NCBI RefSeq assembly: GCF_030547005.1
Contig: NZ_JAUOPN010000010.1
Coordinates: 62,001 to 126,000 of the forward strand
Length of the DNA stretch: 64,000 nucleotides
Reading direction: 5' to 3'
Source of the DNA: Maribacter sp. 1_MG-2023
GTDB taxonomy: Bacteria; Bacteroidota; Bacteroidia; Flavobacteriales; Flavobacteriaceae
Shown here: positions 2,165 through 11,746 of the stretch, piece after piece
Position numbering within the stretch: position 1 is the stretch's first letter
Layout of the letters: each line of letters starts with the position of its first letter
Translations under genes and position numbers: made by a program
The notes under the pieces: generated by a model
Told to the model about the DNA's origin: nothing
Seen by the model: the letters and a program-made list of their open reading frames with translations, nothing else
Databases searched by the model: none

Positions 2165-2793
2165 CTAAAAATTTTTTCCGATTTTCAAAGAATAGTGTGG
2201 AATGGTATCTCCATTTGTATCTGTTTGAGTTGCTGCTACAATCCCCAGAAAATATGAATTTGCAATTTCATAACTATAATGTAAACGTAAAGAACCACCA
2301 AAAGCAAAAGTACGCCCTGGTTCCAATCTAGTAATATCCCTAACAGGAATCGGTAAGTTTGTAGCTGCAGGATACAGTGTTATATAAAAATCACTTAGAG
2401 AAGTAGCTTGATACCTAAACACTGAAAGAATAGTTGCACCAAGTTTGTGTCTATTCATTTCAATAAAGTTATACCTAAACCCCAAAACCAATTGATATCC
2501 TGCAGTTACGGTATGTAGAGAGCCATCATACACATTACCTTCGAATCTTTATAAGTCAATAAATAATCTGGAGTATCATTCAAGGTACCTTCAAAACCTA
2601 GTTGCCAATATGATTTTTTGGATAGTTCTTGTCCATAATTAAAGCCATAATGATAGCCAGGTATATCTGCCGAACCATGAACACTTCTACCAAACATGAA
2701 TTCTAAATAAGAGTCATCGTTATTCTGAGAATAGATAGATAAAGTGGTAAGTAAAGTAAAGATGAAGAATAAAATATTTTTCTGCAAATCCAT
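2165..2793 (-). pseudogene. Outer-membrane beta-barrel-like protein interrupted by a frameshift
   Basis: Two overlapping reading frames together make one protein of about 210 residues. The upstream part (2506-2793) has a signal peptide ending in SIYSQN and beta-rich sequence; the downstream part (2165-2533) continues with alternating beta-strand sequence and ends KIGKNF, a typical C-terminal aromatic. The frames join cleanly near 2538-2541, where one extra base (AAGG to AAGGG on the minus strand) would restore a KDSKGNVYDGS reading. This is either a real frameshift or a sequencing error in a short G run. No specific family is recognised; beta-barrel membership is inferred from the strand pattern and ending. 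Confidence 0.7.
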
Positions 2794-2900: not shown

Positions 2901-2931
2901 ATCTATGCATCCTATCTATGCATCCTATCTA
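2901..2931. repeat. 13-bp tandem duplication at the end of the LytTR gene
   Basis: The unit ATCTATGCATCCT occurs twice (2901-2913, 2914-2926) followed by a partial third copy. It spans the stop codon of the LytTR gene, and removing one unit gives the same C-terminus and stop, so it looks neutral. It suggests recent slippage. Confidence 0.85.
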
Positions 2932-3661
2932 AAATCTCCATAATCTCGGTTTTCTTTCGGACTGATACTGGAACATTCTCTCCATTTTTCAACATTAAAT
3001 AACCGCCATCGGTTTTTATATAGGCGCTGATGCATTGAAGGTTTACTAAATGACTTTGGTGTACACGCACAAAATCGTGACTACTTAAAAGGTCTGCAAA
3101 GTACTTTAAGGTCTTTGTTACGAATATCTTACGTTTGTCTTGAAGATGAAAAATGGTGTTGTTACTATCAGATTCGCACCGAATAATGTCATCTAAGCTG
3201 ACAATGATAATTTGATCTAGTGTATGTAACGATATTTTATTTGGTTTTTTCTCTGGTGCAGAAATAGTCTCTTTTAAAATCTGTAAACGTTCTTTATTTG
3301 GCTGCAATTGCTCTTTTGCTCTAGATATAGCTAAGCTCAAATCTTCATTAGCATATGGTTTTAATACATAGTCGATTGCTGCAAACTTGAAAGCACGTAT
3401 CGCAAATTCATCACTGGCTGTTACAAATATGATTTTAGACTTCAGGTCTGGGAAAATCTCTAAAATATCAAAGCCCGTACCATCTCCCAACATAATATCC
3501 AAGAACAGAATATCGGGCTGATTTTTGCGTAGCACTTTTGCGGCTTCCACTACACTCTGTGCCGTGGCGATAATTTCAATCTCTGGATGCTGGGTCTCAA
3601 TATCCTTTTTTAAAAGGGTCATGGCATCGATCATGTCTTCTACTATTATCGCTGTATGCAT
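2912..3661 (-). CDS. LytTR-family response regulator
   Basis: A 249-residue two-domain regulator. Residues 1-120 form a receiver with the acidic pair E8/D9, phospho-acceptor D55 (LFLDIML), the conserved Thr (FVTAS) and Lys (VLKPY). Residues about 145-245 form a LytTR DNA-binding domain (IIRCESDSNNT, then FVRVHQSHLVNL). It lies 6 bp after the LytS-type kinase, its obvious partner, as last gene of a five-gene operon. LytTR domains bind paired direct repeats two helical turns apart. Matching repeats occur upstream of this operon's first gene (9333-9364) and upstream of the VIT/VWA gene (11715-11746), so autoregulation plus control of that neighbour is the likely output. Confidence 0.93.
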   Translation of the reverse strand: MHTAIIVEDMIDAMTLLKKDIETQHPEIEIIATAQSVVEAAKVLRKNQPDILFLDIMLGDGTGFDILEIFPDLKSKIIFVTASDEFAIRAFKFAAIDYVLKPYANEDLSLAISRAKEQLQPNKERLQILKETISAPEKKPNKISLHTLDQIIIVSLDDIIRCESDSNNTIFHLQDKRKIFVTKTLKYFADLLSSHDFVRVHQSHLVNLQCISAYIKTDGGYLMLKNGENVPVSVRKKTEIMEILDRMHR

Positions 3662-3667
3662 AGGTCT

Positions 3668-6600
3668 TTAATAATCTGTTAGTAAAGGTATTTTAAAGGT
3701 AATCTTGGTACCATCAATATTACCGTCTTCATTTTTAATTTCACTGATATGCAGGGTATTGGTACCTACAATTGATTCTAGTCTTTCTTTGGTAACGGTC
3801 AATGCCATAGATTGATGGTCTGTTTTTGGCTTTTCGCTTTGCGATTTAAAAATACCTAATCCGTTATCAATAATACTACATTGTAAATGGGTCTCGCTAG
3901 TACTAAAACCTATCTCAAGCTTACCGGGTTTATTGCCTTTTAAAATACCATGTCTAATGGCATTTTCTACAAATGGCTGAATTAACATTGGCGGAATCAA
4001 TATCTCTTCGGCATCAGGGTTGGTTTGAACATCAATGGTATACTCAAAAGGTTTCTGTGCCATTAATTGCTCTACTTCTACATAATGCCGCAACGCCTTA
4101 ATTTCTTGGTCTAAACTTATATGTTCTTTCCTCGAATTCTGTAGTGTTTCTCTCAATAATATGGCAAAGCTATTAATGGTGGTATCCATCTTTTCTGGCT
4201 TGTTGCCTGCCATCGCTTTTATCCCATTTAAAACATTGAATATAAAATGCGGATTCATTTGTAATTGCAATGCTTTCTGCTCTAAGGTTAGCAGGTAATT
4301 CTGTGTTTTCAATCGTTCTTGCTCCGCTTTGTTCTTTGCTTTTATCTTACGAATGTAAAACCACCCAATACCTAACAATACAACAATTGCCAATGCCAAG
4401 ACCGACCATTGAAACCAATCTTTTTTGTACAGCGGACTATCGATAAAAAAGCTGAATTTGATAGGATCACTTTCTTGCCATCTGTAATTTCTAGATTGCA
4501 CTTGAAAAGTATGAGACCCATAAGCCAGACCCGCAAAATTTTGCTTGTTCTCTTTTACCCACGGACTCCATTCTGTATCATCTAGTTTTGTTCTGTACTC
4601 AATTTCATTTGGGTGATCCACATCTACCGTTCTGAACGAAAAACCTAATTGCGTCTGCTCTGGAGTTAGTTGTAGTACTTTGTTACTATTTGTCCAGTCT
4701 TTTAAAATTAAGGAATCAATATTCTTATACCGCTCCTCTACTGCCGTAAAATAAACTGTTGGTGCTAACGACGCCTTTTTGCTTTCACTAGGCACATGTT
4801 TGGTCAATCCGTAAATGGCACCAAACCATAGATTTCCAGAGTCATCTTTATCTACGGCATTTAAGCAGGTTTCTATTCCTAGAAATCCGTCATTTCTACC
4901 AAAGTGATAGACGTCTACAATTTCATTATCGGTGTTCAATTCTATCTTATCCACTCCCCTTTCGGAACCTGCCCACATGTACCCTTGGTCATCGAAAATG
5001 AGCTGATAGATGTTATTAGAAGATAAATTCTTGTTTCCTTTTAATTGCTGAAAATTTACAAGGTTTGTGCTGTTCGCATACCAAATACCCTTACCCGATG
5101 TACCTAAGAAAATAGTACCATCATGAAACAAAATGGTATTAACTGCGGTTTGTTGTTCTAAACCGGTTTCAATACTGGTCACCTTGTTATTTTCTATATA
5201 CCCTAAATGACCATTTTGTGTAGCGTACCACAACTTACCATCTCGGGCTTTTACCATGCCTTTTATCAGCATATCGGTAATACCATTGCGCTTAGAAAAG
5301 GTTTTTCTAACCACTAGGCTGTCATTATCTGAATAGTAATTGAATTTAACAATACCATGGGCATACGTAGCTGCCCAGATATAATCATCTTCGGCAATTA
5401 CGGTACGCACCCAATCTGAAGGAAAGCCTTTGCTCTCATCAATGATATGATTGGTGGTTCTTTCAACGGAAACGGTATCTATCTGTATTAAAAAGGTTTC
5501 GCTTGAAGAGAACACCAAACTGTCCACCATTTTAGTTTCTCGAAATAAAAGCCCTCTATTGTCTGATCCTGCCCAAATATTGCCTTTTGCATCGCTATCG
5601 ATTGTCTTGATTTTGACATCGAAAAATGTACCCTTACTTGGTAATGATTGAATTCCTGTGGAATCTATTTTTGCTAAACCAGCTTCTGATGTGGAAAACC
5701 ACAATCCGTCTGCTGTATTATGCACCGCATAAACCCGATTTCCCTTTAGACCTGATCTTTGATTATAGTGCTTAAAGTTATTCTGAAAGTACTTGTAAAA
5801 TCCGCCACCGGATGTAGCAATCCACAAATTGCCATTATCATCTTTTACTACTTTTCTAATATGCGGAGTTGCTAAACCACTAGCTGTATTCAATTGCTTG
5901 ACCTCTGCAAATTTATTCGTTTCTACAATAGTAATTCCATCATTGTCAGTCGCTACCCATAACTCATCTGTATTTTGAATTGACATGGAGTTAATACGTG
6001 ATGGTTCTGGCATTAGAAACCGGTCATCGTTATTATCTTGATCGATGATAAATACACCATCATCAAAAGTAGCCGCAAGAATTTTGTTTTGATGTGCAAT
6101 AACGGACTTAAAATTATTGACTTCTAATTTTATTTTTTCTGTTGCAGAATCTCTTAATTCATTAAGTTTCCATAAGCCATTATTAGTTGCTAACCAATAG
6201 TAATCTCCATCAAAAAGAATGAAATTAATTTCGCTAGAATCTATTTCAGGATTAATAGTAATCTTACTTAATTCTTTATTTTTAGAATAGCTATAGAGTC
6301 CCTTTTTAGTACCTACATACAGTACATTTTCAGCATTGTAGAATTCAAGTATTTGTGGGGAATTAAAATTTACGAAGTTGTTCTTTACTTTTATAGAAAG
6401 TCCTTTTCTGGTTCCCACAAAAAGCGAGTCATTTGTGGTATATAAGGCATCAATATAATTTGAAAGTAATCCGTCACTTTCATTCCATACCTCAAATGCA
6501 TTTCCATCAAAATTTGCCAATCCGCCACCTTGGGTTGCCATCCACAGATAACCCATTTCATCTTGTATAATATCATATACTTGAGACTGTGGTAAACCAT

Positions 6601-6700
6601 CTGCAATGGTATATGCTCGTAGCTGGCTATTTTGCGCAGCTACATACATTGTTCCAAAAAAACAAAATACCGATAAGACGTATGTTCTAAGCAGATTCAA
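3668..6700 (-). CDS. LytS-type sensor histidine kinase with beta-propeller and Y_Y_Y sensor domains
   Basis: A 1010-residue membrane sensor. After a signal peptide comes a long periplasmic region of Reg_prop-type repeats (recurring GLPQSQVYDI, DNGNLWIAT and DDQGYMWAGS patterns), roughly residues 25-640. A Y_Y_Y-type beta-sandwich follows (FSFRTVDV to FQVQSRNYRW), then one transmembrane helix (LALAIVVLLGIGWFY) and a cytoplasmic LytS-type kinase. The H-box is LQLQMNPHFIFN, and the ATPase has PPMLIQPFVENAIRHG and DNGLGI. It is the partner of the LytTR regulator 6 bp downstream. In Bacteroidota such propeller sensors often detect extracellular ligands; the ligand here is unknown. It is 41 bp after the His/Cys-dyad protein gene. 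Confidence 0.93.
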   Translation of the reverse strand: MNLLRTYVLSVFCFFGTMYVAAQNSQLRAYTIADGLPQSQVYDIIQDEMGYLWMATQGGGLANFDGNAFEVWNESDGLLSNYIDALYTTNDSLFVGTRKGLSIKVKNNFVNFNSPQILEFYNAENVLYVGTKKGLYSYSKNKELSKITINPEIDSSEINFILFDGDYYWLATNNGLWKLNELRDSATEKIKLEVNNFKSVIAHQNKILAATFDDGVFIIDQDNNDDRFLMPEPSRINSMSIQNTDELWVATDNDGITIVETNKFAEVKQLNTASGLATPHIRKVVKDDNGNLWIATSGGGFYKYFQNNFKHYNQRSGLKGNRVYAVHNTADGLWFSTSEAGLAKIDSTGIQSLPSKGTFFDVKIKTIDSDAKGNIWAGSDNRGLLFRETKMVDSLVFSSSETFLIQIDTVSVERTTNHIIDESKGFPSDWVRTVIAEDDYIWAATYAHGIVKFNYYSDNDSLVVRKTFSKRNGITDMLIKGMVKARDGKLWYATQNGHLGYIENNKVTSIETGLEQQTAVNTILFHDGTIFLGTSGKGIWYANSTNLVNFQQLKGNKNLSSNNIYQLIFDDQGYMWAGSERGVDKIELNTDNEIVDVYHFGRNDGFLGIETCLNAVDKDDSGNLWFGAIYGLTKHVPSESKKASLAPTVYFTAVEERYKNIDSLILKDWTNSNKVLQLTPEQTQLGFSFRTVDVDHPNEIEYRTKLDDTEWSPWVKENKQNFAGLAYGSHTFQVQSRNYRWQESDPIKFSFFIDSPLYKKDWFQWSVLALAIVVLLGIGWFYIRKIKAKNKAEQERLKTQNYLLTLEQKALQLQMNPHFIFNVLNGIKAMAGNKPEKMDTTINSFAILLRETLQNSRKEHISLDQEIKALRHYVEVEQLMAQKPFEYTIDVQTNPDAEEILIPPMLIQPFVENAIRHGILKGNKPGKLEIGFSTSETHLQCSIIDNGLGIFKSQSEKPKTDHQSMALTVTKERLESIVGTNTLHISEIKNEDGNIDGTKITFKIPLLTDY

Positions 6701-6741
6701 ATATGTGTTCTATTTTAAGTAATTATCTAACGTTGTTATGC

Positions 6742-7773
6742 TTATAATATTTGATATAATAAAGGGTCTTGTATGTTTGTGTTTTGGTACTCAGTGGTAT
6801 CATTAGGCTGCAAAATAGGTGCCAATACGCAGAGTACGGTTGTTTTTCCTTTTATTATTAGTTTATTTCCTTGTACATTACTTCTCCAACGGAATTTTTC
6901 TATCGGAATGTTCAATTTAAATAGTACCTCAGCCATTTCTGGAGATTCTGAAATCCAATCCATAATTGCCTCTTTGTCTTCTAAATTAGGAATATCGGTA
7001 ACAGCATCAAAAGTAAACTCCCAATCTACCGGAATATTAAACTTGAAACTATAGGCTTTACCAAATGAAGACTCTTGCCTCGTCTTTAACGCTTTAAACC
7101 AATCGATAGCTACATCAGGATATGCTTGTTTAAACTCCTTTGCAAGATGCGCAGGTCCTTTAGATTCTGCTGTTGGGTAATACGCGTAGTAGGGTTTTGC
7201 CAAATAGTGATCTGCATATTTACCGCCGAATACATTAAAATATGAGGACGCCACTACTTGATCTGCTTTAAACGTATTTTTCAATTCTTGAAGTAAGGGT
7301 TGATTTTCCCCTAATCCGCACGAATGAAATATGATTTTAGAACTACTAGCAATGTTCTCACAAATCGTTTCTATACTATAATCTTGTATTGCATTTTGTA
7401 AAGTGGAAACAGTAATTCGCTCTCCTGTTTTTGTAGTCTTTAAAGACATGCCCAACCAGGCATTGCTATGGCTTACAATGTGTATTTCTTTAAAACGCAC
7501 TTGATTTTCTCCTACACTATTTAGATAACTTAAAATCTCATCAATAGCATACAAACTATCTACAATTGGCATTCCTTGCTTTTCAAAATACTGCTTGGCA
7601 TTGCTATAATAGGTGTTATCACCTTCATCAAAACCAGCAATAAAAACAATAGCTTCTTGTACCATTTCTTTTTTGGTAGGTGAAGCAAGTGCCGCCTCCG
7701 ACTGTTGCGAAAACGGCTTCTTACTACCTAGCATTAGCATACTAACCAATACTATAATTAAACACTTATTCAT
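6742..7773 (-). CDS. Secreted protein with a His/Cys dyad like caspase-fold (clan CD) proteins
   Basis: A 343-residue protein with an N-terminal signal segment (LIIVLVSMLMLG). I do not recognise a named family with certainty. Two blocks stand out: a hydrophobic strand ending in a histidine (IHIVSHSNAW, H102) and, 50 residues later, a hydrophobic strand ending in a cysteine (IIFHSCGLG, C152). Hydrophobic-strand-His and hydrophobic-strand-Cys at this spacing is the layout of caspase-fold proteins (CHAT, clostripain and DUF4347-like groups). Whether it is a peptidase is inference. The C-terminal ~120 residues show no motif I know. It sits in the LytTR operon, 9 bp after the SH3 protein gene and just before the sensor, so it may act in the same envelope-sensing circuit. 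Confidence 0.6.
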   Translation of the reverse strand: MNKCLIIVLVSMLMLGSKKPFSQQSEAALASPTKKEMVQEAIVFIAGFDEGDNTYYSNAKQYFEKQGMPIVDSLYAIDEILSYLNSVGENQVRFKEIHIVSHSNAWLGMSLKTTKTGERITVSTLQNAIQDYSIETICENIASSSKIIFHSCGLGENQPLLQELKNTFKADQVVASSYFNVFGGKYADHYLAKPYYAYYPTAESKGPAHLAKEFKQAYPDVAIDWFKALKTRQESSFGKAYSFKFNIPVDWEFTFDAVTDIPNLEDKEAIMDWISESPEMAEVLFKLNIPIEKFRWRSNVQGNKLIIKGKTTVLCVLAPILQPNDTTEYQNTNIQDPLLYQIL

Positions 7774-7782
7774 AATTATTTT

Positions 7783-8676
7783 TTAAAAGTCTATACTAAC
7801 TACAGCATCATCCTTAACCTCACGAACTTGTTCTTTATTAGTCAACTTAGAGCCGTTCCACACATACTTTGTGGTAATGAATTCAACGTTGTTTTGAGCC
7901 AATGCATCATCAAGTGTTTTGATGTTTTTTGTTATAGTCGTTTTCAGTAAAATAGTACTCTTAACACCTTGCATATCCGACGGAAAAACAAAAGACTCGG
8001 TCTTTAAGTAATTGGTGTCTGCATAATCTATTAAATCCGCCACTTTCTTGAATCTACCATTATTCCAAAACAGGTAGCTTTTACCTACTTGGTAACCTGT
8101 GTCTTTATCAGCTAAATCTACTGTAATCACATCTTCTACATTAAACAGACCTAAACTACCGTGATTTTCAATATGAACCGGAATGGCAGCAAGACTATCC
8201 AACACCATTTTGTCTAATTGTTGTCCGTTTTTAAAGGCACGTAACTGGAATTCTGTTTCTGTAACTCCAGATTCGTTTTTGGCACTACTTTCATACCCAT
8301 ACACAAACTTCACTTGGTTGTCTGCAATACTCCCAAAAGATTTTTGAGCGATCATACCTCCCCAAACCCATCCGGTTTCATTGCCTGTTGTTACTCGGTA
8401 CCAGTGGCTATTGATGCCATCTATCTCCTTAGAGTACATGCTTTTTTCCCACAGTACCATTTTAGTTCCAATATCTAGAAGTGTAACTTTTTTACTTCTA
8501 ACAGATGGCTTTTCACGAAGGAATACTTTGTGGGCCAATAAATACTCATACGTTAGTTCTTCTGCAGGAATATCTTTATCCATCACTTCAAATTCTACTT
8601 GTTCTACACTTTGGGCGAACATGTTTACAAATGCAAATAAGCATAGGAATAAGGCACTTTTCTTTAAATTTTTCAT
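7783..8676 (-). CDS. Secreted bacterial SH3-domain protein
   Basis: A 297-residue protein with a signal peptide ending at FVNMFAQS. Residues about 50-110 form a bacterial SH3 domain (FLREKPSVRSKKVTLLDIG, then HWYRVTTGNETGWVWGGM), a fold that often binds cell wall or peptides. The rest is beta-rich with no catalytic motif seen. It is second in the five-gene LytTR operon: the previous gene ends 21 bp upstream and the next starts 9 bp downstream. A periplasmic or surface role beside the sensor is likely; the binding target is unknown. Confidence 0.75.
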   Translation of the reverse strand: MKNLKKSALFLCLFAFVNMFAQSVEQVEFEVMDKDIPAEELTYEYLLAHKVFLREKPSVRSKKVTLLDIGTKMVLWEKSMYSKEIDGINSHWYRVTTGNETGWVWGGMIAQKSFGSIADNQVKFVYGYESSAKNESGVTETEFQLRAFKNGQQLDKMVLDSLAAIPVHIENHGSLGLFNVEDVITVDLADKDTGYQVGKSYLFWNNGRFKKVADLIDYADTNYLKTESFVFPSDMQGVKSTILLKTTITKNIKTLDDALAQNNVEFITTKYVWNGSKLTNKEQVREVKDDAVVSIDF

Positions 8677-8697
8677 AATTCTAAATTTTAAGGGTTA

Positions 8698-9261
8698 TTA
8701 ATAATTAATTGCTGTTATAGCGTCTTCAGTATCAAAATCATCGTCGTTCCAGGCGATGCTTCTAAGTACTTTAATGTCTTTAATAGTAGCTGTTTCTGTG
8801 TATTCTAATACTGCTCTTAGTATGGTTCCTTCTTTGCCGAATAATTGGCTAGGAAAAATGTAGTGTATGTCTAAAATAGGTTCGTAGGCATACTCATTCT
8901 TTATACTTGGCAGCGCGATAAAATCATTGTCATTACTTACCAAATAATAGTACTCTTCTGTGCTTGAACAGCAAGCGTTATATTCTAGTGTTACTTTTAA
9001 AATTTCCTTGATATCTTCTAAATCCGGATTACTTAAAACCGAAATGCGTATTTCATCTAATAAACCGAAATCGGCAATTGACAATGTTGCCACAAGACGC
9101 TCTGGATTGTTTGATTCGATTACGTCTACCAACCAAGTGTCTTCGTCTTCTTGACCACTACTTCTTTGATTCGTGATATCGTAGGTATCCGTTAATAGAA
9201 ACTCCTGTGCATTGGTGATACAAATGCTGAATAAAAAGGCGAATAGGATTAAATTTTTCAT
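8698..9261 (-). CDS. Hypothetical secreted protein, first gene of the LytTR operon
   Basis: A 187-residue protein with a clear signal peptide (LILFAFLFSICITNAQ). The mature part is acidic and rich in beta-prone segments, with an adjacent cysteine pair (YNACCSSTEEYYYL). I recognise no family. It is the promoter-proximal gene: the start at 9261 lies 34 bp from a TAATTTAG -7-like box and about 70 bp from the paired LytTR-type repeats. Its position implies co-expression with the SH3 protein, the His/Cys-dyad protein, the kinase and the regulator. Confidence 0.7.
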   Translation of the reverse strand: MKNLILFAFLFSICITNAQEFLLTDTYDITNQRSSGQEDEDTWLVDVIESNNPERLVATLSIADFGLLDEIRISVLSNPDLEDIKEILKVTLEYNACCSSTEEYYYLVSNDNDFIALPSIKNEYAYEPILDIHYIFPSQLFGKEGTILRAVLEYTETATIKDIKVLRSIAWNDDDFDTEDAITAINY

Positions 9262-9294
9262 ATTGTTATTTTTAGTTGTTTTCTTTCTACACTA

Positions 9295-9364
9295 CTAAAT
9301 TACAGCAGAGACAGGGCTTTTATGAGGGTGTTCTAGTATTCGTAGCACCTCATCTAGAATTCGT
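9295..9364 (-). promoter_or_regulatory. LytTR-type operator and promoter of the five-gene operon
   Basis: Two direct repeats, CTAGTATTCGT (9333-9343) and CTAGAATTCGT (9354-9364), lie exactly 21 bp apart, two helical turns, as expected for a LytTR dimer. On the minus strand a TAATTTAG -7-like box occupies 9302-9295; its first base is 31 bp from the nearer repeat. Repeats, 21-bp offset and 31-bp spacing are the same in front of the VIT/VWA gene. Binding is inferred. Confidence 0.75.
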
Positions 9365-9420
9365 TGAAATACCCGTATTTATTCAGATACTATCTGTGCT
9401 AACTTGGAATTATAGTAAAA

Positions 9421-9454
9421 GAAAAACCTGCAAAATGTTACACATCTTACAGGT
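9421..9454 (-). terminator. Rho-independent terminator of the VIT/VWA gene
   Basis: On the minus strand a 12-bp stem (9443-9454 with 9426-9437, allowing two G-U pairs) with a 5-nt loop is followed by TTTTTC. It lies just downstream of the VIT/VWA stop and upstream of the next operon's promoter. Confidence 0.85.
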
Positions 9455-9496
9455 CTTCTTCTCCATAAGGAGAACCAACTAACAAAAACTAACTAC

Positions 9497-11644
9497 CTAT
9501 TTTTTCAATGTTAATGTGATTTCTTTTTTAACGGATTGTAAACTGATTTTCTCCAATTCTAACTGTATGGTTTTATCCATCGTCCAGCTACCATTTTCTA
9601 GTTTCTCCACACGTATAACCTTGCCTTCTGCATTGAATTTTATGCGCAAGCTTTCATACTTTTTTAAGTACTCGGTTATTAGTTTGGTATACATTACTTT
9701 GAACTCCATCGTCAATTGTCTTTTTACATTCTTCTCTATTTCGTTTTCAAAATCTATGGTAAATGTGCGCTTAAATTTGCTACTCTCTTTTACCTCAGCT
9801 TCTGCACCAACGGCTGAATTATTTACATTATTAGGCATTGGCAACGGTTGCTTCACTTTGGTCAATGTGCCATCTTCATTTACTATGGCTTCATCTACCG
9901 CTACAAAAGAAGTGTAGTTGGTAAGTAGGTTGTATTTCAATCCCAATTCAATTACTTCTGCTTTTACGTCTTCATTAAATAAGTTGCTGTAATCATCTAA
10001 CTCCCCTATTTTCTTTCTTGCCCATAAGTAACGTAATGCTTTGTTTTGCTTACTTAATTGTCCGTCAGATACATTATACACTTCTCTAAATCGCTTTTTA
10101 CCTTGATAGCCGGTTACAATAATTTTACCCTCAGCCTTGCCTCTATATTTACCATGAACAATAACTGGTCTCGCAGCAAATACATCTGGTATGCTCTTTT
10201 GGGCAAGGTCATACATATCAAAGCCTTTTGATTCAATTTTTACTCGGGTTAATAATGGTGTAGAAATGTATTTAGCAAAATCTTTGGCAACTTCTTCCGC
10301 TTCTTCAGATGTAGTTGCAATAAATGATTTGCTGTTCGACACTTTAGCCATACCCTCTATTAAATATCTATTCACGCTAGATCCTATACCGAAGGTGAAT
10401 ACATTGGCTTTATCCAAATTTGAGCTGATCAGCTCAAAAGCTTCTTTTTCTACACTTACGTAGCCGTCAGTGATAATGACCATAGAACGGGCACTACCCA
10501 TATCTTTTCTTGGTAATTTATATGCCTCGTGTAATGCACTTAATAATTGGGTGCCACCACCGCCTTGACCTTCTGATAAAAAACGAATGGCTGCTTCAAT
10601 ATTCTGTTCGGTCGATTCTACCGGTGTGGGGCTAAAAACAGTTGAACTAGAAGCGAATAACTGAACATTGAAGGTGTCGCTCATTCGTAAATTGCAAAGT
10701 AGGTTTCGCATTAATTGTCTTGATACTTCTAAAGGGTATCCGTTCATAGAACCTGATACGTCTACAATAAACAAGTACTCACGTGACGGAATATCATCTA
10801 ATTCCACATTTTTACTTGGCTCCATTTGATAGGTAAAGAAGTTCTCTTCTTCCCCTTCATACATCAATAACCCCGTTTGTATTTGGTTTCCTCGTAAGTT
10901 ATAATTCAATATAAAATCTCTGTTCGACGGATTTGTATTCTCTTCGGATAAAAAGACTTCGGCTGTTTTCGCATCAGGATGCTTTACGGTTACTTTATGA
11001 CTAGTGCTATTAATATTCTGAATGATCATACCCGCATTCAAGGTTACCGTCATATCAAAATCAAAACTATCTGCAATACCCTTTGTCGTGTATGGCATAT
11101 TAAAGCTCTCTTCATTTTCAGTGCTCTCACCAGTGAACCTTGGACCCACAACACCTGGTGCTACAAATTGATATTCCCCATTTACAGGCACTAATATTTC
11201 TGTGTAATAAATATCTATGGTAATTTCATCGCCAGGCATAATATTACCCACATTCATTTTAAACACATTGGGTCTGTCTTGGTCTAACTTCGCTGCCCGC
11301 TTGCCTTCACTCAAAGCGGTTTCATATACTTTTTGGGCTTCTTGCTTTTCAAATATTTTGGCATTGACAATTTTATTGCCAATAGTCATCTGCATTTTAT
11401 GAACCGCTGCTTGTGTAGAAAGCGGAAATACATATTTTGCTTCTACTGCCCCTGCTCCCTTATTTTGATATACCTGTGTTACCCTAACATGAGCAATAGT
11501 ACCAGATATTTCAACTTCTGTTTTTGAAGATTTTAAAGGAATAACCGCATCTTCTGTAGATACCAATAAATACGGACTGTCATTATCTTGAGAAAAGCCT
11601 GTGAAGATGGTGCAACACAGTAAAAAGGTGTAAAGTAGTTTCAT
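9497..11644 (-). CDS. VIT and von Willebrand factor A domain protein (secreted)
   Basis: A 715-residue protein with a signal peptide ending at FTGFSQ. Residues about 25-155 form a VIT (vault/inter-alpha-trypsin) domain, including GNIMPGDEITIDIYYTE. Residues about 287-460 form a VWA domain with an intact MIDAS motif DVSGS (295-299), and a conserved C-terminal region follows (ALRYLWARKKIGELDDY). VIT-VWA proteins usually mediate metal-dependent protein-protein or surface interactions; the partner is unknown. It is a single-gene unit with its own terminator. Its promoter carries the same paired repeats as the LytTR operon downstream, so it is probably a target of that two-component system. Confidence 0.9.
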   Translation of the reverse strand: MKLLYTFLLCCTIFTGFSQDNDSPYLLVSTEDAVIPLKSSKTEVEISGTIAHVRVTQVYQNKGAGAVEAKYVFPLSTQAAVHKMQMTIGNKIVNAKIFEKQEAQKVYETALSEGKRAAKLDQDRPNVFKMNVGNIMPGDEITIDIYYTEILVPVNGEYQFVAPGVVGPRFTGESTENEESFNMPYTTKGIADSFDFDMTVTLNAGMIIQNINSTSHKVTVKHPDAKTAEVFLSEENTNPSNRDFILNYNLRGNQIQTGLLMYEGEEENFFTYQMEPSKNVELDDIPSREYLFIVDVSGSMNGYPLEVSRQLMRNLLCNLRMSDTFNVQLFASSSTVFSPTPVESTEQNIEAAIRFLSEGQGGGGTQLLSALHEAYKLPRKDMGSARSMVIITDGYVSVEKEAFELISSNLDKANVFTFGIGSSVNRYLIEGMAKVSNSKSFIATTSEEAEEVAKDFAKYISTPLLTRVKIESKGFDMYDLAQKSIPDVFAARPVIVHGKYRGKAEGKIIVTGYQGKKRFREVYNVSDGQLSKQNKALRYLWARKKIGELDDYSNLFNEDVKAEVIELGLKYNLLTNYTSFVAVDEAIVNEDGTLTKVKQPLPMPNNVNNSAVGAEAEVKESSKFKRTFTIDFENEIEKNVKRQLTMEFKVMYTKLITEYLKKYESLRIKFNAEGKVIRVEKLENGSWTMDKTIQLELEKISLQSVKKEITLTLKK

Positions 11645-11676
11645 GATCGTAGTTTTAGATTATTATTATTTGAAGT

Positions 11677-11746
11677 CAAATCTAACTGCGAACTACTCGT
11701 AAAATGGGTACCTTTTAGTATTCGTTGGGTATGAACTAGAATTCGT
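11677..11746 (-). promoter_or_regulatory. LytTR-type operator and promoter of the VIT/VWA gene
   Basis: Direct repeats TTAGTATTCGT (11715-11725) and CTAGAATTCGT (11736-11746) are offset by 21 bp. A perfect TAGATTTG -7 box (minus strand, 11684-11677) begins 31 bp from the nearer repeat. The start codon is about 70 nt beyond the repeat, as in the 9261 promoter. Confidence 0.78.

What the first reader, a model, noticed from the sequence alone, without database searches (positions are those of the whole stretch)
2912..11746. A six-gene LytTR-controlled envelope module with matched operators
Seen: two operators, each with 11-bp direct repeats exactly 21 bp apart and a -7 box exactly 31 bp from the nearer repeat, precede the five-gene operon (9261) and the VIT/VWA gene (11644). 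Known: LytTR dimers bind such paired repeats. Inference: the propeller LytS kinase and LytTR protein control themselves and a secreted set: an SH3 protein, a His/Cys-dyad protein, an unknown secreted protein and a VIT/VWA protein. This combination is not a system I know, and may be a surface-sensing or adhesion/processing module.
Basis: partly seen in the sequence, partly recalled or inferred. Interest (0 to 1): 0.7.

Follow-up and report, generated by a model that had tools for sequence, protein, structure and literature searches.

The report
Self-contained LytTR regulon with cysteine peptidase
Marine flavobacteria carry a dedicated sensor-regulator pair that, judging by an almost perfectly conserved DNA switch, turns on its own operon plus one surface-type protein and a putative partner cysteine peptidase; it looks like an uncharacterised cell-envelope response system.

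Summary
Two operators, ACGAATWCTAG-N10-ACGAATWCTAR, precede the VIT/VWA gene and the five-gene operon. They are the only close matches in the 4.27-Mb Maribacter genome. The six genes and both operators are kept in 11 of 13 related loci, down to 56% identity. Operator-to--7-box geometry is invariant in 58 of 59 module operators. In 299 family genomes, all 24 with this LytTR regulator have the operator, against 1 of 275 without it (p = 1.5e-34). In one genome the VIT/VWA gene lies on another contig but keeps the operator. The invariant part is operator-kinase-regulator; the secreted genes are variable cargo. The 'His/Cys-dyad' protein is a DUF4347/Tce1-like putative cysteine peptidase. The VIT/VWA gene occurs only in genomes with a dyad-intact copy; one clade without it has lost the dyad. 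In 4 genomes a weaker operator precedes an alpha-2-macroglobulin/PbpC operon, in a fifth pbpC alone. VIT/VWA is distantly related to targets of Gram-negative sortases, so this may be a sortase-free analogue. Regulation is near certain; function is inference. Nothing matching was found in the papers searched.

The parts
11715..11746 (-). Operator 2: ACGAATTCTAG-N10-ACGAATACTAA, before the VIT/VWA gene; repeats at 11746..11736 and 11725..11715
   Evidence: conserved at the same place in 13 of 13 related loci (one half-site mismatch in L003)
11677..11684 (-). -7 box TAGATTTG, 62 bp after the start of the first repeat
   Evidence: same offset in 58 of 59 module operators
9497..11644 (-). VIT+VWA protein, 715 aa, signal peptide, intact MIDAS-type DVSGSM; distant relative of TIGR03788 sortase targets but with no LPXTG/TM tail
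9422..9458 (-). Terminator-like hairpin after the VIT/VWA gene, suggesting separate transcription units
   Evidence: consensus match only
9333..9364 (-). Operator 1: ACGAATTCTAG-N10-ACGAATACTAG, before the five-gene operon; repeats at 9364..9354 and 9343..9333
9295..9302 (-). -7 box TAATTTAG (TAnTTTTG in several relatives)
8698..9261 (-). SEC187: secreted all-beta protein, no sequence family; weak fold similarity to PliI periplasmic lysozyme inhibitors
7783..8676 (-). Secreted protein with a bacterial SH3 (SH3_3) domain; dispensable in relatives
6742..7773 (-). DUF4347/Tce1-like putative clan CD cysteine peptidase, exported; His102 and Cys152 follow strands 92-100 and 146-150; lipobox Cys present in many relatives, lost in most Maribacter
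3668..6700 (-). Sensor kinase: signal peptide, periplasmic Reg_prop propeller, one TM (about 763-781), LytS-type His_kinase (NPHFIFN) and HATPase
2912..3661 (-). LytTR response regulator; distribution matches that of the operator

Best explanation
This is a dedicated, self-activating two-component regulon of the cell envelope. A periplasmic propeller senses an unknown signal and drives the LytS-type kinase (inferred from domains). The phosphorylated LytTR regulator binds as a dimer to two 11-bp repeats 21 bp (two helical turns) apart, at a fixed distance from a -7 box that has no recognisable -33 element. It thereby recruits RNA polymerase to its own operon and to the VIT/VWA gene (operator and geometry shown; activation inferred). 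The products act outside the cytoplasm. A Tce1/DUF4347-like cysteine peptidase acts on, or together with, the VIT/VWA protein (inferred from adjacency and co-loss), with accessory SH3 and small beta proteins that differ between lineages. The likely role is to process or remodel surface/envelope proteins in response to envelope attack or contact. My probabilities: regulation of both units by this regulator 0.95; activation rather than repression 0.85; peptidase and VIT/VWA function as a pair 0.6; envelope-defence role 0.4.
For: Operators and genes are kept in relatives of 56-96% identity. All 24 family genomes with the regulator have the operator, against 1 of 275 without it. The VIT/VWA gene keeps the operator when unlinked from the regulator (G050, contigs C1 and C5; G179, C3 and C5). 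Invariant 62-bp offset to the -7 box in 58 of 59 module operators, with strongly conserved half-sites. Published LytTR operators are 9-bp repeats 12 bp apart, and 11-bp repeats 11 bp apart in Bacteroides, just upstream of the promoter and acting in positive feedback (PMC6193735). The peptidase model (pLDDT 86) finds Tce1 (PA0256, a DUF4347 protein) as the only PDB match with E below 0.001 (PMC8262886; putative His/Cys catalytic dyad, PMC13323088). The VIT/VWA ortholog is present only in genomes with a dyad-intact peptidase, also in a second family. Operators recur before A2M-PbpC operons in G138, G045, G267 and G179, and before pbpC in G224.
Against: No binding, transcription or proteolysis data. 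Dyad loss with VIT/VWA absence is one clade, hence one event, so the Fisher p of 0.0018 overstates it. The A2M sites have one mismatch and their -7 boxes are not in register; no A2M homologue was detected in the window's own genome with that query. The signal and substrate are unknown. The fold match to Tce1 covers only part of the model (TM 0.31 by query, 0.53 by target).
Confidence: 0.65

Rival explanations
1. The same regulon, but the secreted genes are unrelated cargo: the peptidase and the VIT/VWA protein are merely co-regulated and do not act on each other.
For: Cargo is variable: SEC187 only, SH3 only, peptidase only, or an unrelated gene before the kinase. Dyad loss is a single event. 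The peptidase gene persists without a VIT/VWA gene in G113 and G131.
Against: In every genome tested that has the VIT/VWA ortholog the peptidase is present with an intact dyad, including a second family where the two are adjacent without SEC187/SH3.
Confidence: 0.35
2. A sortase-like system: the cysteine peptidase is a transpeptidase that covalently anchors or ligates the VIT/VWA protein, replacing the class GN sortase of proteobacteria.
For: The VIT/VWA protein is related to TIGR03788 sortase targets (E = 7e-114). In Rhizobium the homologue sits directly before a class GN sortase. The own genome has no such sortase.
Against: No C-terminal sorting signal or TM in the VIT/VWA protein. Score 382 is below the family cut-off of 552. 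The peptidase has a different, Tce1-like fold. No acceptor is known.
Confidence: 0.15
3. An envelope-defence regulon against external hydrolases (lysozymes, proteases), with the VIT/VWA protein acting as an inhibitor-type scaffold.
For: Operators before A2M-PbpC (protease trap and cell-wall repair) in four genomes; SEC187 has weak fold similarity to PliI lysozyme inhibitors; SH3 domain; VIT/VWA architecture as in inter-alpha-trypsin inhibitor heavy chains (recalled).
Against: A2M operators are imperfect and out of register with a -7 box. PliI E-value is only 0.0076 with TM 0.44. No protease-inhibitor domain in the module.
Confidence: 0.3
4. The repeats are chance or repressor sites unrelated to this LytTR protein.
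For: No binding data.
Against: 0 expected in shuffles; 24/24 against 1/275 co-occurrence; canonical LytTR spacing.
Confidence: 0.02

Closest known systems
LytTR two-component systems (LytS/LytR, AgrA, BtsR types)
   Same: LytS-type kinase with LytTR regulator; direct repeats about 21-22 bp apart upstream of the promoter; autoregulation
   Different: Periplasmic Reg_prop propeller sensor; own operator sequence; regulon limited to two perfect sites in this genome; cargo is a VIT/VWA protein and a Tce1-like peptidase
LytTR Regulatory Systems (LRS: HdrRM, BrsRM; PMC6193735)
   Same: LytTR regulator with direct repeats before its own operon, positive feedback expected
   Different: No membrane inhibitor; a kinase and a phosphorylatable receiver domain are present instead
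Proteobacterial class GN sortase with VIT/VWA target (TIGR03784/TIGR03788)
   Same: A homologous VIT/VWA protein paired with a cysteine enzyme, and (from memory) often with a dedicated two-component system
   Different: No sortase; no sorting signal; cysteine peptidase of another fold; LytTR rather than the proteobacterial regulator
DUF4347 / Tce1 putative cysteine proteases (PA0256)
   Same: Fold, and His then Cys after successive beta strands
   Different: Exported envelope protein in an operon, not a T6SS cargo; scores below the Pfam cut-off
Hybrid propeller two-component systems (HTCS) of Bacteroidota
   Same: Periplasmic Reg_prop propeller sensor
   Different: Separate LytTR regulator and LytS kinase, no AraC domain, no polysaccharide-utilisation genes in the unit

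Membership tests
LytTR two-component system | Receiver + LytTR DNA-binding domains in one regulator | tested here: met
   Response_reg E = 8.7e-16, LytTR E = 5.9e-19
LytTR two-component system | LytS-type sensor kinase next to it | tested here: met
   His_kinase E = 3.2e-20 with NPHFIFN, HATPase_c
LytTR two-component system | Paired direct repeats about 21 bp apart before controlled promoters | tested here: met
   published spacing
LytTR two-component system | Binding of the regulator to the repeats | not testable with these tools
   only co-occurrence shown
LytTR Regulatory System (LRS) | Membrane inhibitor paired with a LytTR regulator that lacks a receiver | tested here: not met
   kinase and receiver domain present instead
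Class GN sortase system | Sortase TIGR03784 in the genome | tested here: not met
   no match in the own genome
Class GN sortase system | VIT/VWA target over the TIGR03788 cut-off with a C-terminal sorting signal | tested here: not met
   382 bits against 552; ends KEITLTLKK without TM, unlike Rhizobium LPQTAT-TM-RRR
DUF4347 (PF14252) | Score over the gathering threshold | tested here: not met
   17.0, 20.2 and 22.1 bits against 24.6
DUF4347 / Tce1-like fold | Clan CD-type fold with His and Cys after two adjacent strands | tested here: met
   AlphaFold model with Tce1 as top hit, prob 1.00, E = 7.9e-4; moderate TM-score, so fold level only
Active cysteine peptidase | Conserved His and Cys | tested here: met
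   intact in all homologues that have a VIT/VWA partner; lost in one clade without it
Active cysteine peptidase | Proteolytic activity | not testable with these tools
   none
Propeller HTCS | Kinase fused to receiver and AraC-type HTH | tested here: not met
   kinase ends after HATPase; separate LytTR regulator

The most novel reading that the evidence does not exclude
A new class of regulated surface-protein processing in Bacteroidota: a Tce1/DUF4347-like cysteine peptidase takes the place held by class GN sortase in proteobacteria, cutting or ligating a VIT/VWA protein under its own two-component system.
Probability: 0.2. Interest if true: 0.75.

Novelty: new variant of a known kind. Interest (0 to 1): 0.52.

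Why it matters
LytTR systems are common in Bacteroidota, but the papers searched here describe few defined targets for them. This one gives an operator, promoter geometry and a near-complete predicted regulon that could be tested in one EMSA and one deletion. The pairing of a VIT/VWA protein with an unrelated cysteine enzyme (sortase in proteobacteria, Tce1-like peptidase here) suggests VIT/VWA proteins are general substrates or partners of cysteine enzymes, a testable idea for a widespread family of unknown function. The recurring A2M-PbpC sites hint at a link to envelope defence.

Tried and rejected
Sequence searches of the peptidase and SEC187 profiles against the PDB gave nothing. A T9SS link was considered from the weak PorZ propeller hit; it is only propeller similarity, and I saw no sign of a T9SS C-terminal domain in the secreted proteins (not tested with a dedicated model). 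The VIT/VWA C-terminal domain matched no family credibly. A2M regulation in Maribacter: no A2M homologue was found in the own genome with that query. The four 3-mismatch sites in the own genome do not exceed the reversed control. A Fisher test for dyad loss against VIT/VWA absence (p = 0.0018) was discounted, since the tree shows one event. Paper searches for LytTR with VIT, propeller or Flavobacteriaceae, for DUF4347, and for class GN sortase found no description of this module.

Full report
WHAT IS THERE. The window is Maribacter-like: the closest loci found are Maribacter MAGs with 94-96% identical proteins. All six genes are present on the minus strand at the stated coordinates with the stated domains. 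The operators are exact: ACGAATTCTAG-N10-ACGAATACTAG at 9364..9333 and ACGAATTCTAG-N10-ACGAATACTAA at 11746..11715. The pattern has 2 matches in the window and none in shuffles, and 2 perfect matches in the 4.27-Mb genome. A terminator-like hairpin at 9458..9422 follows the VIT/VWA gene, so two transcription units are likely.

CONSERVATION. Thirteen loci were fetched with the putative peptidase. Eleven keep VIT/VWA - SEC187 - SH3 - peptidase - kinase - regulator in order. L009 is cut by its contig end within the kinase. L010 lacks the SH3 gene and has other genes between peptidase and kinase. Both operators are present in all 13 (L003 has one mismatch). The gene after the regulator differs in most relatives, so the module ends there.

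THE OPERATOR BELONGS TO THIS REGULATOR. In 299 genomes of the family, the operator (up to 1 mismatch) occurs in 25; the reversed control pattern occurs only sporadically. The regulator ortholog occurs in 24, all among those 25. The 25th, G085, has one 1-mismatch site and no regulator. Fisher p = 1.5e-34. Neighbouring species are not independent, but the 24 genomes are from 20 or more genera. The VIT/VWA gene carries the operator even when it lies on another contig than the regulator (G050), or in a second locus (G179). Across 59 module operators the -7 box TAnnTTTG starts 62 bp after the first repeat in 58; the exception is the distant L090 (four automatic box calls differed from 41, and I re-read three of them by eye at or within a base of the same offset). 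I see no -33 element in the aligned columns, which fits an activator that replaces it. Published LytTR operators have the same geometry and act in positive feedback (PMC6193735).

MODULARITY. Other members have SEC187-kinase-regulator (G072, G177), SH3-kinase-regulator (G093, G195, G045, G267), SEC187-SH3-kinase-regulator (G138), peptidase-kinase-regulator (G131, G113), or an unrelated 166-aa protein (G079). The invariant core is operator + propeller kinase + LytTR regulator. In a second family of the class (G359, G448) the arrangement is VIT/VWA - peptidase - kinase - regulator, which may be the older state (inference).

THE PEPTIDASE. Sequence similarity to DUF4347 is below threshold (17-22 bits against 24.6). 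The AlphaFold model (pLDDT 86) has one PDB match with E below 0.001: Tce1 of Pseudomonas aeruginosa. Tce1 is PA0256, which was annotated as DUF4347 and proposed to be a cysteine protease from a His/Cys dyad (PMC13323088). Here His102 follows strand 92-100 and Cys152 follows strand 146-150. Both residues are intact in every homologue with a VIT/VWA partner. Both are lost in L066, L071 and L075, one clade with support 0.999. G131 and G113 have no VIT/VWA ortholog in the genome; G179 keeps a second, intact copy beside its VIT/VWA gene. This is one event, suggestive rather than proof.

THE VIT/VWA PROTEIN. It matches TIGR03788, marine proteobacterial sortase target (E = 7e-114, 382 bits, cut-off 552). 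In Rhizobium the homologue sits directly before a class GN sortase. The own genome has no TIGR03784 sortase and the protein has no sorting signal. It is therefore a relative, not a member. That proteobacterial systems often have their own kinase and regulator is from memory and was not tested.

WIDER REGULON. Sites with one mismatch precede an alpha-2-macroglobulin - PbpC operon in G138, G045, G267 and G179, and pbpC in G224 (domains). Spacer sequences differ between species, so recurrence suggests selection, but the -7 boxes are not in register. SEC187 is all-beta with weak similarity to PliI lysozyme inhibitors (E = 0.0076). Together with the SH3 domain these point to envelope defence, as a lead only.

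VERDICT. The regulatory unit is real and dedicated; its DNA logic is as well supported as sequence alone allows. The biochemical function is open; the most useful hypothesis is peptidase-VIT/VWA pairing under envelope stress.

Noticed in passing
window 2165-2793 (-): A secreted beta-barrel-like gene just downstream of the regulator is split in two frames here but intact in L005 (13.98-14.61 kb): a frameshift or sequencing error.
   Followed up: partly
L077 9922, L078 9991, L079 9987, L094 (before the gene ending at 8147), L093 (before the gene at 5440): Operator-like sites with one mismatch before alpha-2-macroglobulin/PbpC operons (or pbpC alone) in five genomes that have the regulator.
   Followed up: partly
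L050-L053, L095, L096 (genome G177): G177 has six operator matches, most before genes unrelated to the module; an expanded regulon or a second regulator with a similar site.
   Followed up: no
L065 9043-9618 and L066 9733-9948 (genome G179): The C-terminal domain of the VIT/VWA protein occurs as a separate small protein behind its own operator.
   Followed up: no
L010 10947-15449: A 1500-aa HEAT-repeat protein and two small genes are inserted between peptidase and kinase.
   Followed up: no
L098 6421-11115 (Pontibacter plasmid NZ_CP134698.1): A VIT/VWA region 43% identical to the window protein lies in a 4.7-kb gene annotated as a SusC/RagA TonB-linked outer-membrane protein.
   Followed up: no
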